Below, one piece after another: positions 1 to 6,718 of a DNA stretch of 6,718 nt (its first letter is position 1; every line of letters begins with the position of its first letter). Under the pieces are notes generated by a model. It saw nothing but the letters and a program-made list of their open reading frames with translations. It ran no database searches and was not told the DNA's origin. Source of the stretch: Nitrospinae bacterium RIFCSPLOWO2_12_FULL_45_22 (GTDB lineage Bacteria; 2-12-FULL-45-22); the NCBI GenBank assembly GCA_001803565.1, contig MHDQ01000113.1:1-6718 (forward strand). Reading direction: 5' to 3'. The translations under genes and the position numbers were made by a program.

Positions 1-1330
1 ATAAGAGTTGTCTATCGTTGAACATCTGATGCCAATAATTGTAGTTATAATTAAGCACCTGATCAGTATTATAGCCTGGTTCTATTACAACTTTAGGATA
101 GTCTACACCACTGTGTTCTAGCATACGGCTGGCCTTCTCATATAGTGCTCTATCAAAGTCATCAATTGGCAGATAGTTCTTTTCCCCATTTGGCATGAGA
201 ACAACTTTTGCATACATACGGTGCTGGGGTGGATGGCCTAGAGTCTTTACAGCCGCAGCGATAGGGAAGACATCCCTGCATTCAGGACAAGTCGCTTTGG
301 TCTTATTAGCAGGGCCCTCTTGTGGATTGTAGGTCACGTGGCATTGATCACATCTTGCTTTGTTATCCCTTATCAAAACTAAATTTATAGCACCACACTT
401 TGGACAAGTAGATTTAGCTTCGGGATATCGGCGTGAATATGCATGCTGCACAAAAATCCGATTACTAAAAAGGTCCACCAGATTTCCGCAGTTGGGACAG
501 GGAATAATCTTTACCCAAAAATAATAAAGTACATCCACAAGTCCATGATTTTTCAGTTTGGCTTTATAGTATGCCTTGATCTCGTTCGCTACATCTCTTT
601 CTATCGAAGAAAATGTTTCGAGCACTTCTGATTCAGAATAGGAATTGAGGGCATTTCTAACAAGAAAATAGGAAACGGGATTAATGTCTCTACCGATCAC
701 CCGGCACCCCAGTTTGTGGGATTCACCAACCGTAGTACCGCTTCCCATGAAAGGGTCATAAATAATAAAATCTGGAAATCGCACTGGTTTGTAAAACAAA
801 TCAAAAATATCTGTATCTATTGGTGTGCAAGCACCAATAATAATGGAACGGAAAACCGAGCCTAACCGCTGGGCCCACCATTTATGAATATGGTAAATGG
901 GACGATAAACTTCCTTTCGCCAGGACTCGATTTCAGCAAGTTCGGTAATCCTTTCGATTGGGAATGATGACTCAATAGCCTTTCGATTAATTGTGTTACT
1001 AGCTATTTTATAAACAGGTTGTTCTTCGGCTACTTTGAGATAATTGGTATCTTTAAACAGACTTTGCCTTAACCGATCTGTCGTTTTTCTTGGGTCAGTT
1101 TCAATCAAAGGCATCCACTCTTGAGGAACTCGGCGGGCAAGTAACATAAGTTCATCCTGCTCTTGGTTCAATACCTTAGCAAGCTTTTGAACCACTGCTT
1201 CGGAGGGCAAAACTTTGCCATTTTCTAAACGCGAGAGATAACTCCGGTCAATAGATATTTTTGCAGCAAGGGTTTTTAGAGAAATTTCTTTGGCTCTTCG
1301 TAATTGGCGAATGTAGCCTCCAAATTTCAT
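1..1330 (-). CDS. XRE-HTH / zinc-ribbon DNA methyltransferase fusion, 3' end cut by window
   Basis: The gene reads open for 443 codons from ATG at 1330 to the window edge, with no stop, so its C-terminus is missing. Residues about 4-65 form an XRE-type helix-turn-helix (IRQLRRAKEISLKTLAAKI, then SYLSRLENGK). Residues 144-155 (PIYHIHKWWAQR) resemble the HxWWARR segment of zinc-ribbon adenine-specific methylases (COG1743/DUF1156-like). DPFMGSGTT at 192-200 is the SAM-binding motif I, followed by GRDINP at 213-218. Four CxxC pairs at 278/281, 309/312, 327/330 and 348/351 form one or two zinc ribbons. The WHQMFNDRQLL stretch near the cut resembles the segment that precedes the catalytic DPPY motif, which should lie just outside the window. 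Expected role: modification methyltransferase, probably N6-adenine (from family knowledge), protecting DNA against the nuclease encoded upstream. In place of the usual family N-terminus it has an HTH, which suggests self-regulation like a C protein. No Shine-Dalgarno sequence lies at normal distance before the ATG; GGAG is 13 nt away. Confidence 0.85.
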   Translation of the reverse strand, partial: MKFGGYIRQLRRAKEISLKTLAAKISIDRSYLSRLENGKVLPSEAVVQKLAKVLNQEQDELMLLARRVPQEWMPLIETDPRKTTDRLRQSLFKDTNYLKVAEEQPVYKIASNTINRKAIESSFPIERITELAEIESWRKEVYRPIYHIHKWWAQRLGSVFRSIIIGACTPIDTDIFDLFYKPVRFPDFIIYDPFMGSGTTVGESHKLGCRVIGRDINPVSYFLVRNALNSYSESEVLETFSSIERDVANEIKAYYKAKLKNHGLVDVLYYFWVKIIPCPNCGNLVDLFSNRIFVQHAYSRRYPEAKSTCPKCGAINLVLIRDNKARCDQCHVTYNPQEGPANKTKATCPECRDVFPIAAAVKTLGHPPQHRMYAKVVLMPNGEKNYLPIDDFDRALYEKASRMLEHSGVDYPKVVIEPGYNTDQVLNYNYNYWHQMFNDRQLL

Positions 1331-1337
1331 AGTGCTA

Positions 1338-1367
1338 ATACTACTCCATGGTTGACTAAATTGTCAA
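1338..1367 (-). promoter_or_regulatory. Methyltransferase promoter, nearly leaderless
   Basis: On the minus strand, TTGACA (1367-1362) and TAGTAT (1343-1338) are separated by 18 bp. Only seven bases lie between the -10 box and the ATG at 1330, so transcription would begin at or next to the start codon. This agrees with the absence of a well-spaced ribosome binding site. Leaderless mRNAs are common for restriction-modification control genes. The call is by motif only. Confidence 0.5.
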
Positions 1368-1369
1368 CC
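1350..1369. promoter_or_regulatory. Palindromic operator, probable site for the HTH domain
   Basis: GGTTGAC and GTCAACC form a perfect 7-bp inverted repeat around the 6-bp spacer TAAATT. It starts 20 bp upstream of the methyltransferase ATG and overlaps the -35 box of that gene's promoter. Such palindromes are typical binding sites of XRE/C-protein dimers, and the adjacent gene encodes an XRE domain at its N-terminus. Negative autoregulation by occluding the -35 box is the natural reading. Binding is inferred, not shown. Confidence 0.55.
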
Positions 1370-1380
1370 TTTAATATCTT
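1352..1380 (+). promoter_or_regulatory. Candidate divergent promoter, antisense to the nuclease gene
   Basis: The other arm of the palindrome gives TTGACT at 1352-1357. After 17 bp comes TATCTT at 1375-1380, matching the -35 consensus at 5 of 6 positions and the -10 consensus at 4 of 6. RNA from here would start near 1387 and run rightwards into the nuclease gene as antisense. A weak -10 box leaves this uncertain. Confidence 0.3.
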
Positions 1381-1537
1381 TATTGTCTATTGGCTTTACT
1401 CCCCCGAAAATTTTTTAACGCCTTATTTTATAGGGCTTTTGGGTGATTACCATTGAGAAACTCCTAAATCATGAAATCCTTCTAAAAATCAGCGGTTACG
1501 ACTATATTGGTGGAGCTAAGTCAATAGGCAATAATGA
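1377..1537. repeat. 161-bp element with imperfect terminal inverted repeats
   Basis: The segment 1377-1396 matches the reverse complement of 1518-1537 at 17 of 20 positions; the cores are TCTTTATTGTCTATTG and CAATAGGCAATAATGA. The repeats bound a 161-bp segment in the spacer between the nuclease and methyltransferase genes. This could be a small non-autonomous transposon-like (MITE) element or a pair of distant regulatory sites. No clear target-site duplication is visible, and no transposase is encoded. Confidence 0.3.
1415..1453 (-). CDS. Possible 12-residue leader peptide or gene remnant
   Basis: On the minus strand an AGGAG (1465-1461) stands 7 nt before ATG (1453-1451), a textbook ribosome binding site. 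The frame encodes only MVITQKPYKIRR before TAA. It lies 84 bp ahead of the methyltransferase start. It may be a chance match, the 5' remnant of a lost gene, or a leader peptide on read-through RNA from the nuclease gene. There is no further support. Confidence 0.15.
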   Translation of the reverse strand: MVITQKPYKIRR

Positions 1538-1616: not shown

Positions 1617-2506
1617 TCACATGGGTTCAATTGGCAGCTTGAACTTTCCCCGGGGTTGTGTGCGGACTTCACGCGAGGGCGTTAGGAAAGGATTAGTCAA
1701 ATCCTTGAGTTTGTGATCTCGTGGAATGTCTCTTGTTCTCCGATAGCAATAGAAAAGATGTTGTTCCTTGTCCAACGAGCGGAATAATCTATACACCAAT
1801 TTTAAATCTTTATAAGACAGCGGCAAATCGTGAGCCGGGTGGATAAGTGTAACTGTCCGGTCCAGTTCAGGAGTGCCTAATGGATTGGCGAAGATAAACA
1901 TAGGTCTAGTCCTATCCGCACCATTACGATAACTTCCAAGATTTATTTTCTTCTCCCTTGGACCTACTATTGAGCAATAAAGGTCAAAATCTTGATTCAG
2001 CACATTACCATCGCATAGGGCCAGGGCAGTTACTTTATAAGTGTTTGTATTTTTAGGAATGGGTTCCTGACAAACAAATAAATAGAAACCGCGAATATCC
2101 AGGGGGATATTATTTGCATCATATATTCGAACTGTTCCACAAGGGGGGTAGTGTTATAGTCTAGTCCAGACGCTCTTGCTACCGTCCCTCCTTTCGTCCT
2201 TTCAACTTTTTTCACCTCAACTGCGGCTATTCTAGTCAAGTCATTACGAAGCTTCTCCTTAACAACACCATTACACAGTTTCGGTCGGAAGATTACAAAG
2301 TCAGGAGAGATAAGTGGGCCAGAAGATTTCTCGCAAATTGCATTTTTGATTTCTTCTGTCAGAACATGGTGGATATATTCATCTAGAGGGTCATCCTGGG
2401 TATTGAGTTTGTCGCGAAGGGAGTACGGTTTTGGACTACCATTTGTATCAAAGAAGTAGTCACTAAGTACCATAAATACTTCAACCATCAGATCAGAATA
2501 AGTCAT
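1617..2506 (-). pseudogene. PD-(D/E)xK restriction endonuclease gene split by a one-base frameshift
   Basis: The N-terminal part runs from ATG at 2506, with AAGGAAG at 2521-2515 as ribosome binding site, and shifts frame at the six-C run (2148-2143). Read straight on, it would end at 2030. Supplying one extra C joins it to the frame that ends at 1617, restoring about 296 residues. The restored joint reads YNTTP, then PCGTVRIYDANN and RGFYLFVCQEP, which is convincingly protein-like, whereas the unshifted tail is not. Residues P68-D69 (SPDFVIF) and E97-V-K99 (AAVEVKK) form a PD-(D/E)xK nuclease core. Later segments include DGNVLNQDFDLY, LGSYRNGADRTRPMFIFANP and a basic C-terminus. It lies on the same strand just upstream of a DNA methyltransferase gene, so a type II-like restriction role is inferred. 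The recognition site is unknown. The break may be a sequencing error, a real inactivation, or slippage on the homopolymer. Confidence 0.7.
2143..2148 (-). other. Frameshift site at a six-base homopolymer
   Basis: Six G on the plus strand (six C in the coding sense) mark the point where the nuclease reading frame changes. Seven would restore one continuous protein. With CCC in the ribosomal P-site preceded by another C, a -1 slip keeps perfect pairing at that codon, so slippage is possible as well as a simple deletion or base-calling error. Confidence 0.65.
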
Positions 2507-2572: not shown

Positions 2573-3670
2573 TTAGGTACGTTGGGTACGATAGTGGGCC
2601 TTCTTTTTGTGCCGTTCTATGGCCAATTCTATTAATCGGTCTAATAGCCGCGAGTACGGGATACCACTAGCCTCCCATAACTTAGGATAGACACTGGTAG
2701 CGGTAAATCCTGGAATAGTGTTAATCTCATTAAGATAAATTTTGTTAGTACCGTTTTCTAGAAAGAAGTCTACCCGGGCCATCCCACTGGCTCCAATGGC
2801 CTTGAAGGCCTTGATGCTTAGCCTCTGAACCTCACCGGTTATTGTGGCTGGTAAGGACGCCGGTATATGTATATTAACCAACTCATCAGAATATTTTGTC
2901 TCATAATCATAAAACTCATGTCCCGGGATGATCTCTGCCAGCACTGATGCCTCAGGCTCTTCGTCACCTAAGACCCCGCACTCTAATTCCCGGCAATCAA
3001 TGGCCTTTTCTACCAGTATTTTTTCCTGATAGAGACCCGCCTCAGCCACGGCATCTACTAATTCCTGACGAGCATTGGCTTTAGAGATGCCAATACTGGA
3101 GCCTAAAGCCGCTGGTTTAACAAAAACGGGATAACCCAGAGACTTTTCTATTTCCTCTGCTATCTGAAGAGACGAGGCTCTCCACTCTGTAAGTTTGAAA
3201 GTAAGAAAATCTACCACCGGTAGACCTGCTTCTCTTAATATGATCTTCATGTAGCCTTTATCCATACCTACCGCAGAGGCTAGCACTCCCGCACCTACGT
3301 AAGGTAAGTCTGCTATCTCACAAAAACCCTGAATAGTCCCATCTTCACCGTAAGGACCATGCAGCACAGGAAATACTAGATCAATCCCCTGGATAAAGGG
3401 TTCAAACCCGCGCTTGGATTCATTCGCTAGCAGGAGGAGCCCGCGAGGCATGCGGTTCAAAGAGGGCGTAACTACCTGGCCAGCTACAGGGGCCAGGGAG
3501 CTACTCTTATGGGCTAGTGACCATTCTCCTTCAGGAGAGATGATAACGGCGATAACCTCGTACTTTTCTTTATCCAGGGCCTCTACAACCGATTTAGCTG
3601 AGTTTAAAGATACTTCATGCTCGGCTGAGCATCCTCCCGACAAGACCAACACTTTTAGTCGCTTATCCAT
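2573..3670 (-). CDS. ddl: D-alanine--D-alanine ligase
   Basis: This cytoplasmic ATP-grasp enzyme joins two D-alanines, using ATP, to make the dipeptide that MurF adds to the peptidoglycan precursor. At 365 residues it is normal for the longer Ddl forms. Family motifs appear in order: GGCSAEHEVS (12-21, substrate-binding N-terminal loop), HGPYGEDGTIQG (104-115), VKPAALGSSIGISK (184-197, ATP-binding region), EFYDYETKY (252-260), ARVDFF (298-303) and LNEINTIPGFT (313-323, metal and substrate ligands). The KY pair at 259-260 is the dipeptide-ligase form rather than the His found in VanA-type D-Ala-D-Lac ligases. The start is supported by AAAGGG (3682-3677) six bases before the ATG. The basic tail HKKKAHYRTQRT is not part of the fold. 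No mur or fts genes flank it in this window. The split nuclease gene follows after 66 bp without a terminator, so the two may be cotranscribed. Confidence 0.95.
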   Translation of the reverse strand: MDKRLKVLVLSGGCSAEHEVSLNSAKSVVEALDKEKYEVIAVIISPEGEWSLAHKSSSLAPVAGQVVTPSLNRMPRGLLLLANESKRGFEPFIQGIDLVFPVLHGPYGEDGTIQGFCEIADLPYVGAGVLASAVGMDKGYMKIILREAGLPVVDFLTFKLTEWRASSLQIAEEIEKSLGYPVFVKPAALGSSIGISKANARQELVDAVAEAGLYQEKILVEKAIDCRELECGVLGDEEPEASVLAEIIPGHEFYDYETKYSDELVNIHIPASLPATITGEVQRLSIKAFKAIGASGMARVDFFLENGTNKIYLNEINTIPGFTATSVYPKLWEASGIPYSRLLDRLIELAIERHKKKAHYRTQRT

Positions 3671-4361: not shown

Positions 4362-5216
4362 ATGATATTTCAGGAAAAGTTGATGCCTAAATATGGAGCA
4401 TTATTGGATAGGCTCAAAGCCTTTGTGGTAGCTTCTTCTATCAACCTTAAATATTTTGATATTACCCCATTTGGTCTCAAGATAGCCGCAGAAAATATCA
4501 TTAACCCCTTACGGACAGATTCTCAGCCGTTTCTGAGCCTGCTCCAAGTCCTTGACAGGAAAGCCTTTGGCTCGGGGGAAGCGGGAGAATTGACGGCACC
4601 TAAATGGTTATTTTATGATTGTGCGGAGTTCCCTGGGGGTATCTTTGGCTTTGGCTTTCAGGGTAAAGAATCATCTCTCCAGGCTAAGCAGCTTATGGGA
4701 CTGGATAAAGATTACCGGGGGCTAGTACCTATCTCTATGTTGATTACTATACCTATGATCGAGCCCGGCGTTTGGATGAGCCATACCTTGAGTTCTCTTA
4801 GTCAGGCTTTGCCAGGCGAGGGATTGGCTGGTCTTGGCGCCTTAACCAAGACACTAGCAATAAAGGTTTTTAGGGTAAGGATGTTATACGGTGCTACCCA
4901 GTGGGATAATCCCAGTGTTTATATTCATGCAAAATTTGGCCCCCTAAAACTGGTCACGGCTTACACGCCGGCCCATTCATTGGAAAATACCTTCACCTAT
5001 TGTGTGGATATCAATGATGAAGTTTTAATCAGGATACTTACGGATGATTCCCCGAGAACTTCCGACTACAGCTTCTTTTTAGCGGTGGATGATATTGCCA
5101 AGATGAAAGAAATGCAAGGTCAGATCGAAGAGCATAAGGCGGAGTACTGGATTGCTGGCCCACCCTGCAGAAAAGATAATAAGGCCTTTGTCCCAATAAA
5201 GATGACACCCTGCTAA
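4362..5216 (+). CDS. Conserved-looking protein of unknown function
   Basis: I cannot assign a function to this 284-residue product. It looks like a real gene: GAGGG (4350-4354) stands 7 bp before the ATG, and composition is normal throughout. A second start at residue 8 (ATG 4383) also has AGGA at proper spacing, so MPKYGALLDRL could be the true N-terminus. It shows no signal peptide, no clear membrane helix and no nucleotide-binding or familiar catalytic motif. Distinctive stretches likely to define the family are WLFYDCAEFPGGIFGFGF (82-99), LVPISMLITIPMIEPGVWMSH (121-141), GATQWDNPSVYIHAKFGPLK (177-196) and VTAYTPAHS (198-206). The C-terminus ends in TPC. The downstream AsmA-like gene begins 30 bp later on the same strand, so an envelope-related role is possible but only inferred from context. 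Confidence 0.75.
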   Translation: MIFQEKLMPKYGALLDRLKAFVVASSINLKYFDITPFGLKIAAENIINPLRTDSQPFLSLLQVLDRKAFGSGEAGELTAPKWLFYDCAEFPGGIFGFGFQGKESSLQAKQLMGLDKDYRGLVPISMLITIPMIEPGVWMSHTLSSLSQALPGEGLAGLGALTKTLAIKVFRVRMLYGATQWDNPSVYIHAKFGPLKLVTAYTPAHSLENTFTYCVDINDEVLIRILTDDSPRTSDYSFFLAVDDIAKMKEMQGQIEEHKAEYWIAGPPCRKDNKAFVPIKMTPC

Positions 5217-5246: not shown

Positions 5247-6718
5247 ATGGGTGAAAAATCTAAAAAGAAAAGCATAATAACGGCCATCTGCCTGTCACTC
5301 TTCTGTTTCATCCTCCTGGCATCTCTCTTGCCTTATCTAGTTACCTCGGCGCGGGTAGAAAAATATATCACCTTAAAGCTAAGCAGCTTTTTACAAACAA
5401 AAACCAGCTTGCAGAATATAAGCCTGAGTCTCTGGCCCCCAATAGGGATCAAGGTAGCGGGCCTGGAGATTAAAGATATAGGTCCGGGCGAGGAAAATCT
5501 TATCCAGCTAGAAGATTTGTCTCTAAAGGTCTCCCCCTTACCCCTTCTCTGGGGGCAAGTATCCCTAAAAGAGGTAAGGCTGAAAGGTCTGACTCTAAAT
5601 ATTAAGCGGAACAGCCAGGGAGAGACAAACCTTGCCCGTCTTTTAATGGTGAATGAAAGAACTAGCCCGAAAAGGTGGTATTTACCATTTTCTTTAAAGA
5701 TAAAAAACCTGATAATAGAGCATGGGCAAATCATCGTCCGGGATGAGGCATTAACCTCCGCCCCTTTTACTTTTGCCCTGAGCGATGTTGGTATAAGTAT
5801 TCGGGGAGTTTCCTTTGATCGGCCTTTCCCCTTCCAGTTAGAGGCCCAGCTACCGGATAGCATACGACCCGCTAAGATTGCACTACAGGGTAAAATCATT
5901 CCTCCACCCAACCATCAGAGTTGGTCAAAATATAGAATAGACAGCACTATCCAGATAAGTTCTTTACCTCTGGCTCAATTTACCCCTATCCTGGCCAGCA
6001 AAAGGCTAGGGGGTTGGATAGATATAACCGGTAACTACTCAGGAGAGATAACTGGCCCTTTCTCCTCTTCTTTCCAGGTTAAGTTCCTTTCCCTTGACCT
6101 CGATGATCCCCGGTTATTTCAACAACCCATATACTTGCCCGAAGGGCAACTCAGTTTTAAGCTCGATAATGTTGATAAGCGATTAGCCCTGGAGGATATA
6201 TTACTTACAACTGGCGTATATTCCCTAAAAGGGTTTTGCCGTTTAGAGAACCAGGAACTCCATGCCCAATTTAATTCTGCGTCTCCTGTACTGCTGACTT
6301 CTATCAAAGACCATTTACCCCAGCAGATATTTCCTAAGCCCATCTACAAATATATCCAGAAGAGGATGCTGCGGGGTCAGATTGATAACTTCAGCTTAGA
6401 GATTAAAGGTGGGCTGAGAGAGATTACCAATAAAGAACTAATAGCTAAAAAGAATCTAATAATGGCCCAGACAAGACTTTCTGAGGTAGAGTTGACCTTT
6501 GATGATCATTTCCATTCTGTGGAGGAGGTAAAGGGCCTGGTGAGCTTCCGGCAGGGTAAGCTGATCTTCTCTGACCTGCAAGGTCGTTACAAAGGCTCTG
6601 GGCTCCTAAGAGGCTCCGGGCAAATAGACCATCTCTTAGGGCTTCCTGTCTTAAGCCTATCTATTGAAGGGCCTATACGGGTAGAGGACCTGGGAGCGGA
6701 TTTTGCCGCTGATAAATC
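5247..6718 (+). CDS. AsmA/DUF3971-like envelope protein, 3' end cut by window
   Basis: The gene reads open for 490 codons from ATG at 5247 to the window edge. A basic N-terminus (MGEKSKKK) precedes one hydrophobic helix at about residues 9-32, giving an inner-membrane anchor with the rest in the periplasm. Then follows a region rich in short beta strands, starting with ISLSLWPPIGIKVAGLEIKD (58-77), typical of the AsmA/YhdP/TamB group. The part near 430-450 (GLVSFRQGKLIFSDLQGRY) fits DUF3971-type YhdP relatives. Those proteins are thought to form lipid-carrying grooves between inner and outer membrane, or otherwise affect outer-membrane assembly, so the organism is probably diderm. No Shine-Dalgarno sequence precedes the ATG; an in-frame stop at 5217 rules out a much longer N-terminus, so translation may be coupled to the gene ending at 5216. 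Assignment to the superfamily is fairly firm; the exact subfamily is not, since the C-terminus is missing. Confidence 0.75.
   Translation, partial: MGEKSKKKSIITAICLSLFCFILLASLLPYLVTSARVEKYITLKLSSFLQTKTSLQNISLSLWPPIGIKVAGLEIKDIGPGEENLIQLEDLSLKVSPLPLLWGQVSLKEVRLKGLTLNIKRNSQGETNLARLLMVNERTSPKRWYLPFSLKIKNLIIEHGQIIVRDEALTSAPFTFALSDVGISIRGVSFDRPFPFQLEAQLPDSIRPAKIALQGKIIPPPNHQSWSKYRIDSTIQISSLPLAQFTPILASKRLGGWIDITGNYSGEITGPFSSSFQVKFLSLDLDDPRLFQQPIYLPEGQLSFKLDNVDKRLALEDILLTTGVYSLKGFCRLENQELHAQFNSASPVLLTSIKDHLPQQIFPKPIYKYIQKRMLRGQIDNFSLEIKGGLREITNKELIAKKNLIMAQTRLSEVELTFDDHFHSVEEVKGLVSFRQGKLIFSDLQGRYKGSGLLRGSGQIDHLLGLPVLSLSIEGPIRVEDLGADFAADK

What the first reader, a model, noticed from the sequence alone, without database searches (positions are those of the whole stretch)
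1..1369. Methyltransferase with a built-in control-protein domain and its own palindromic operator
Seen: an XRE helix-turn-helix (residues about 4-65) is joined to a COG1743-like zinc-ribbon methyltransferase, and a perfect palindrome lies 20 bp upstream over its -35 box. Known: many restriction-modification systems use a separate C protein, and some methyltransferases such as M.EcoRII and M.SsoII repress themselves through N-terminal extensions. Inference: here the C-like function is fused to a zinc-ribbon methylase that usually has a different N-terminus, so modification level and gene expression may be coupled in one protein.
Basis: partly seen in the sequence, partly recalled or inferred. 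Interest (0 to 1): 0.6.

Follow-up and report, generated by a model that had tools for sequence, protein, structure and literature searches.

The report
Self-repressing DNA methyltransferase of restriction system
A bacterial DNA-modifying enzyme that protects the cell from its own DNA-cutting enzyme carries a built-in gene-switch domain, and nine related genes from distantly related bacteria share the same switch site in front of them, so the enzyme most likely turns its own gene down once enough has been made.

Summary
Window 1330..2 (-) encodes an XRE helix-turn-helix fused to a COG1743/DUF1156-like zinc-ribbon amino-methyltransferase, cut off by the contig end; full-length orthologues (about 825 aa) carry the missing TDPPFF motif IV. 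The 1350-1369 palindrome is not a chance repeat. All nine HTH-fused genes found (five or more phyla) have GTTGACA-N4-(T/A)GTCAAC (right half decayed in three) over the -35 box of a promoter that ends 6-7 nt before the ATG, predicting a leaderless mRNA like those of C-protein genes. None of 37 HTH-less homologues has the site; it is unique in the 3.67-Mb host genome and forms a sharp phylogenetic footprint. HTH-less relatives have M and R in one operon; HTH-fused ones have M in its own transcription unit. Best reading: a type II R-M system whose methyltransferase represses its own gene. It works like M.SsoII/M.EcoRII, but on an unrelated N6A/N4C-type enzyme: a new variant of a known kind. Binding and repression are untested.

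The parts
2..1330 (-). M gene: XRE-HTH fused to COG1743/DUF1156-like amino-methyltransferase, 443 aa, C-terminus cut off by the contig end
1139..1324 (-). XRE/Cro-type HTH domain (aa 3-64), similar to C proteins and SinR
   Evidence: Pfam HTH_3/HTH_31; PADLOC Control_protein; for orthologue L003, PDB C.AhdI by sequence and SinR by fold
731..757 (-). methyltransferase motif I, DPFMGSGTT (aa 192-200), AdoMet binding
   Evidence: nearly all positions invariant in the alignment
278..499 (-). zinc-ribbon region with four CxxC pairs (aa 278-351)
   Evidence: C278, C281, C309, C312 invariant; the others at least 90%
1350..1369 (.). operator: GGTTGAC-N6-GTCAACC, conserved before all HTH-fused orthologues
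1338..1367 (-). M promoter: -35 TTGACA (1367-1362), 18-nt spacer, -10 TAGTAT (1343-1338), 7 nt to ATG; predicted leaderless mRNA
1617..2506 (-). R gene: PD-(D/E)XK-type restriction endonuclease homologue in two frames (2506-2145 and 2144-1617), broken by a frameshift
   Evidence: fold of orthologue L003 R
2143..2148 (-). run of six C (G on + strand) at which the R reading frame shifts
2210..2305 (-). putative catalytic motif of R: PD (aa 68-69) to EVK (aa 97-99)
   Evidence: conserved in all six R orthologues aligned
1379..1532 (.). MITE-like repeat with imperfect terminal inverted repeats, directly upstream of the operator; separates R from M
   Evidence: 73% identical copy at C85:10496-10647 of the same genome

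Best explanation
The locus is a type II restriction-modification system. R (2506-1617) is the endonuclease and M (1330-2) the protecting N6-adenine or N4-cytosine methyltransferase. M carries an N-terminal XRE/C-protein-like HTH joined by a flexible linker. Two M molecules bind the GTTGAC-N6-GTCAAC dyad through their HTH domains, cover the -35 box and spacer of the strong leaderless M promoter and keep RNA polymerase off. M is thus made fast in a naive cell and then throttles itself to a maintenance level. Shown here by sequence: the fusion, the conserved operator-promoter unit, its tie to the HTH, and the R partner. Inferred: HTH binding to the dyad, repression, the dimer, and the gain for R timing (M is its own transcription unit, so self-repression does not also shut off R).
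For: All nine HTH-fused genes carry TTGACA with the dyad centred -27 to -29 from the ATG and a -10-like hexamer 6-7 nt before it. TTGAC-N6-GTCAA occurs in 79 loci only before HTH-fused M genes, and in 0 of 37 HTH-less homologues (Fisher p=9e-6, not corrected for relatedness). GTTGAC-N6-GTCAAC is unique in the host genome; across nine genomes six sites are M promoters and three lie elsewhere, equal to the three of the reversed-pattern control. Footprint: 22/22 identical operator bases against 16-17/47 just upstream (L004-L006), 20-21/22 against 10-16/47 (L003, L078, L079). L078 and L079 were found after the motif was noted and kept the promoter, the left half-site and the spacing. R homologues lie next to M, and the top fold matches of R are nearly all type II endonucleases. 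HTH-fused M is in an operon with R in 0 of 7 cases, against 25 of 27 without HTH. The model gives a folded HTH, a disordered linker at aa 87-105 and a folded catalytic part. Precedent: M.Ecl18kI binds GGACAAATTGTCC over its own promoter and competes with RNA polymerase (PMC3695355).
Against: No experiment. In three members (L003, L078, L079) the right half-site is degenerate (TTATCA), so the dyad is not perfect everywhere and its dyad score alone is not significant. The window's own R is frameshifted and its M is incomplete in this assembly, so this copy may be inactive. The operon and operator contrasts are not corrected for phylogeny; two HTH-less relatives (L032, L035) are also convergent with R.
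Confidence: 0.8

Rival explanations
1. True C-protein-like action: the HTH-methyltransferase both activates and represses, and directly controls the R gene through operators at R.
For: The HTH scores against C-protein models and C.AhdI; the leaderless promoter is typical of C genes (PMC4824078).
Against: One dyad only, over -35/spacer; no second site in register nearby and no site with up to 3 mismatches within 250 bp before any of seven R genes; the HTH is not encoded upstream of R.
Confidence: 0.08
2. The dyad is a methylation target of M, and the promoter is controlled by methylation of its recognition site, not by HTH binding.
For: Control by methylation of recognition sites in the M promoter is known in R-M systems (PMC3874152); the operator sits in the M promoter; GTTGAC counts are half the reversed control in G000.
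Against: HTH-less homologues lack the site; GTTGAC is not avoided in four genomes with HTH-type systems (G003, G004, G005, G007), and genomes with HTH-less systems (G008, G009) show a moderate deficit too.
Confidence: 0.06
3. The HTH is an extra target-recognition or DNA-scanning domain of the methyltransferase, and the palindrome is the site of an unrelated host regulator.
For: XRE domains are common DNA binders; there are no binding data.
Against: HTH-less homologues keep the whole catalytic and recognition part and the R partner; the site occurs only with the HTH fusion, in unrelated host phyla, and at background elsewhere in the genomes.
Confidence: 0.05
4. Decaying locus: the self-repressing fusion is functional in relatives, but the window copy no longer works as a system (frameshifted R, element inserted between R and M). 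This is compatible with the best explanation for the family.
For: R is broken at a C6 run; a MITE-like repeat lies at 1379-1532.
Against: The HTH-methyltransferase frame is intact over 443 aa with motif I, zinc ligands and operator conserved; one homopolymer error in a metagenome assembly would explain the R break equally well.
Confidence: 0.3

Closest known systems
Regulatory m5C methyltransferases M.SsoII / M.Ecl18kI (also M.EcoRII, M.MspI, M.ScrFIA, M1.LlaJI)
   Same: N-terminal C-protein-like HTH of about 70 aa joined by a flexible linker to a type II methyltransferase; inverted-repeat operator at the M promoter; the cores look alike (M.Ecl18kI site GGACAAATTGTCC against GTTGACAAATCTGTCAAC here) (PMC3695355, PMC3978073).
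   Different: The catalytic part is an amino-methyltransferase (N6_N4_Mtase, DPPF) with zinc ribbons and about 825 aa, not a 379-aa cytosine-C5 enzyme; R is convergent or tandem, not divergent from a shared promoter region; the M mRNA is predicted to be leaderless.
C (controller) proteins of type II R-M systems, e.g. C.AhdI, C.Kpn2I
   Same: XRE-type HTH, short symmetric operators over or near -35, leaderless regulatory transcript; C.Kpn2I inhibits the M promoter at -35 while R has its own weak promoter (PMC6237814, PMC4824078).
   Different: Not a separate small protein; single operator; no sign of activation or direct control of R.
C-REase fusions (NsoJS138I)
   Same: A control-type regulator covalently joined to an R-M enzyme, both parts active (PMC3850674).
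   Different: There the regulator is joined to the endonuclease, here to the methyltransferase.
COG1743 / DUF1156 zinc-ribbon methyltransferases
   Different: A described partner set is a SNF2-helicase nuclease and a DUF499 protein (PMC7641849); here a small PD-(D/E)XK endonuclease and a fused HTH; DUF1156_antiphage score far below cut-off.

Membership tests
Autorepressing (regulatory) DNA methyltransferases of the M.SsoII/M.EcoRII type | HTH domain N-terminal to a DNA methyltransferase in one polypeptide | tested here: met
Autorepressing (regulatory) DNA methyltransferases of the M.SsoII/M.EcoRII type | Inverted-repeat operator overlapping the M promoter | tested here: met
   Dyad over -35 in nine genes, right half decayed in three
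Autorepressing (regulatory) DNA methyltransferases of the M.SsoII/M.EcoRII type | Operator distinct from the methylation site | tested here: inconclusive
   Only indirect: GTTGAC is not avoided in four of the genomes; the methylated motif is unknown
Autorepressing (regulatory) DNA methyltransferases of the M.SsoII/M.EcoRII type | Cytosine-C5 methyltransferase catalytic domain | tested here: not met
   Pfam N6_N4_Mtase, motif IV TDPPFF, no C5 methylase match: it works like these, but is not one of them
Autorepressing (regulatory) DNA methyltransferases of the M.SsoII/M.EcoRII type | Binds the operator and represses its own transcription | not testable with these tools
   needs gel shift and reporter
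C proteins of R-M systems | Separate small HTH protein encoded upstream of and with R | tested here: not met
   the HTH is part of M; no C gene next to R
C proteins of R-M systems | Paired operators (OL/OR) upstream of the regulated gene | tested here: not met
   a single dyad at each M promoter within 250 bp, none at R
C proteins of R-M systems | Leaderless regulator mRNA | tested here: inconclusive
   -10-like hexamer 6-7 nt before ATG in nine genes; the start was not mapped
Type II restriction-modification system | Adjacent endonuclease gene with a nuclease motif and fold | tested here: met
   R homologue beside M in 31 of 43 loci (weak E-values for the HTH-less ones) plus L078, L079 and the window; PD...EVKK; fold ranks led by EcoRV/SwaI/HincII, best E 0.009, Z up to 6.4, so moderate support
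[quoted passage not shown]
   recognition sequence unknown
NCBIfam DUF1156_antiphage (NF042963) | Score above the curated cut-off of 1000 bits | tested here: not met
   48 bits (window fragment), 109 bits (full-length L003)

The most novel reading that the evidence does not exclude
A whole C-like regulatory cassette (operator, leaderless promoter and HTH reading frame) was captured in front of a zinc-ribbon amino-methyltransferase gene. This went along with breaking the ancestral M-R operon, so that convergent transcription from the unrepressed M promoter runs into R and delays it: a one-protein timing circuit in a methyltransferase class not known to regulate itself.
Probability: 0.35. Interest if true: 0.62.

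Novelty: new variant of a known kind. Interest (0 to 1): 0.5.

Why it matters
Methyltransferase autorepression through a fused HTH has been described as typical of cytosine-C5 enzymes, with six experimentally confirmed cases (PMC3695355). This would extend it to the amino-methyltransferases and show that the same circuit arose on an unrelated catalytic scaffold. With nine natural variants, a predicted operator and HTH-less sister systems as controls, it makes directly testable whether self-repression of M replaces M-R operon coupling. The partner endonuclease family is also unnamed in Pfam, NCBIfam and PADLOC.

Tried and rejected
(1) Chance palindrome: by itself not excluded, rejected on comparative grounds. 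(2) Finding the rest of the M gene in the same genome: only other methyltransferases matched (C73, C6, C192). (3) Relatives in viral contigs: none; phages: one weak partial match; plasmids: 178 records, but the 20 listed all start at query residue 96 or later, so none of these shows the HTH. (4) Same phylum as the window: only two genomes held, no second copy. (5) A family name for R: no Pfam, NCBIfam, PADLOC or PDB sequence match. (6) Operator as recognition site: no avoidance of GTTGAC in four genomes with the system. (7) L028 carries a different, shorter HTH-like N-terminus (HTH_31 E=4e-5) without the dyad: treated as a separate case, not counted. (8) One origin of the HTH: the tree needs two changes (one gain and one loss, or two gains); deep forks are open and the window branch is long, so this is undecided. 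(9) The Sorokin et al. 2009 list of C-box motifs could not be read (not held). (10) My first promoter-scan script skipped the last 40 bases and was replaced by the fixed-register table.

Full report
WHAT IS THERE. The window is one whole 6718-bp contig (C113) of a metagenome-assembled genome of 3.67 Mb, 85% complete. Position 1 is therefore an assembly end, not a biological one. The reading frame 1330..2 (-) gives 443 residues without a stop. Residues 3-64 are an XRE/Cro-type HTH (HTH_3 E=5e-13, HTH_31 E=1e-12), with matches to C-protein models. From about residue 115 the protein is a DNA amino-methyltransferase: the HIHKWWAQR block, motif I DPFMGSGTT (aa 192-200) and four CxxC pairs between 278 and 351 are conserved across 13-25 relatives. 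The NCBIfam DUF1156_antiphage model hits at 48 bits, far below its cut-off.

THE MISSING HALF. A scan of 84,980 species genomes gave 43 relatives. Complete ones with the HTH are about 825-830 aa and carry motif IV as TDPPFFDNVHYS: motif I first, then zinc ribbons and about 400 residues, then motif IV. The AlphaFold model of orthologue L003 (mean pLDDT 82) has a compact five-helix HTH, a disordered linker (aa 87-105) and a folded catalytic part. Its weak structural neighbours include CcrM, M.PvuII and, for the HTH, SinR.

HOW COMMON THE FUSION IS. Of the relatives, six begin with this HTH (L003, L004, L005, L006, L018, L037); the rest start near residue 59-120 of the query. Searching 395 genomes from each of two phyla, 95 from a third and 64 from a fourth added two more (L078 from G643, L079 from G755) and more HTH-less homologues. 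With the window that makes nine, from hosts labelled Nitrospirota, Thermodesulfobacteriota, Myxococcota, Latescibacterota, Methylomirabilota and the window's own sparsely sampled phylum. On the methyltransferase tree the HTH group needs two changes of state against a shuffled mean of 8.4: clustered, but one or two origins cannot be told apart.

THE OPERATOR. All nine promoters start GTTGACA and continue with a 16-18 nt spacer to TATCAT, TAACAT, TAGTAT, TAATAT, GATAAT or TATATT, then 6-7 nt to the ATG (the hexamers are read from the printed sequences). Six have the full GTTGAC-N6-GTCAAC; three (L003, L078, L079) keep the left half and a decayed right half (TTATCA). The dyad centre lies at -27 to -29 in all. 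In the 79 loci held (about 650 kb by the later count) the pattern TTGAC-N6-GTCAA occurs only there. In the window's genome GTTGAC-N6-GTCAAC occurs once, at this spot. Over nine genomes six of nine sites are these promoters, and the other three equal the count of the reversed control pattern. None of 37 HTH-less homologues has it near its start. The footprint is sharp: 22 of 22 bases identical in the operator against 16-17 of 47 just upstream among L004-L006. As a single sequence the palindrome would not have been convincing (shuffle p=0.11).

Upstream of M on the same strand, 2506-2145 and 2144-1617 are two frames of one protein. It is 53-56% identical to the 300-residue protein encoded next to M in L003, with relatives in L004-L006, L032, L035, L078 and L079. 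It holds (T/S)PD...EVKK, the layout of a PD-(D/E)XK nuclease, and no database names it. The fold model of L003 R (pLDDT 71) ranks EcoRV, MutH, SfiI, BglI, HincII and Sau3AI in Foldseek (best E 0.009), and SwaI, EcoRV, HincII, BglI and NlaIV with Z 5-6.4. Each match is modest; the agreement of nearly all top rows on restriction enzymes is what counts. Distant versions of R also sit next to the HTH-less methyltransferases. In the window the frame shifts at a run of six C (2143-2148). This may be a real lesion or an assembly error.

GENE ORDER. In HTH-less systems M and R form tight operons (25 of 27: 21 M-R and 4 R-M, gaps up to 24 bp; two are convergent). In all seven HTH-fused systems with R visible, M is its own transcription unit: six are convergent with R (L003-L006, L078, L079), and in the window R precedes M with a 286-bp gap and M's own promoter. 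Fisher p=7e-6, not corrected for relatedness. No operator-like site precedes R. This makes sense if M represses itself: in an operon, self-repression would cut R as well. That the convergent M transcript hinders R until M has shut itself down is my inference; promoter competition is documented for Ecl18kI (PMC3695355).

MECHANISM AND COMPARISON. M.SsoII and M.Ecl18kI bind a 15-bp inverted repeat (GGACAAATTGTCC core) with two molecules, compete with RNA polymerase for the M promoter and so keep M low (PMC3695355, PMC3978073). That type of control was described as typical of cytosine-C5 enzymes, with six confirmed cases. The system here has the same parts on an N6A/N4C-type enzyme, and a related-looking core (GACAAATnTGTC). 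C proteins share the HTH type, short dyads and leaderless transcripts (PMC4824078), but use paired operators and act on R. C.Kpn2I is the nearest in logic, since it inhibits the M promoter at -35 while R is constitutive and weak (PMC6237814). Fusions of a C protein to the endonuclease are known (PMC3850674). I found no report of the HTH-zinc-ribbon methyltransferase fusion in the held library; REBASE and subscription papers were not searchable.

VERDICT. Observation confirmed; interpretation supported with the amendments above. It works like a regulatory methyltransferase, but fails the C5-catalysis criterion of that family, so it is a new variant of a known kind. Shown: fusion, conserved operator-promoter, association with the HTH, R partner, gene-order shift. 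Not shown: binding, repression, methylated motif, R activity, and whether the window copy is functional.

Noticed in passing
window 1379-1532; copy at G000:C85:10496-10647 (L002): About 155-bp non-coding repeat with imperfect terminal inverted repeats (TTATTGYCTATTGRCTTWRCT-like ends) and a 73% identical copy elsewhere in the genome; looks like a MITE lying directly upstream of the M operator.
   Followed up: partly
window 2143-2148: R reading frame breaks at a homopolymer of six C; intact homologues read on through the same codons. Sequencing error, pseudogene or slippage cannot be told apart here.
   Followed up: partly
L028:5740-5920 (Sphingosinicella sp. LHD-64): A different, shorter HTH-like N-terminus on an otherwise HTH-less branch of the same methyltransferase family: possibly an independent fusion.
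   Followed up: no
downstream of M in L007, L010, L011, L014-L016, L019-L031, L033, L042: Large family of 250-300-aa endonuclease-like partners of zinc-ribbon methyltransferases, distantly related to R; the three tested (L010, L019, L029) have no Pfam match.
   Followed up: partly
G000:C73:9-1725 (L047, L048): Second relative of the same methyltransferase family in the window's genome, near a contig end, with no match to the HTH part.
   Followed up: no
window 2573-3670 (-): D-alanine-D-alanine ligase (Dala_Dala_lig_C E=2e-74), whose 3' end lies 66 bp upstream of the R start.
   Followed up: no
window 5247-6716 (+): Start of an AsmA/DUF748/YhdP-like protein, cut by the contig end; the gene before it, 4362-5216 (+), has no Pfam match.
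   Followed up: no
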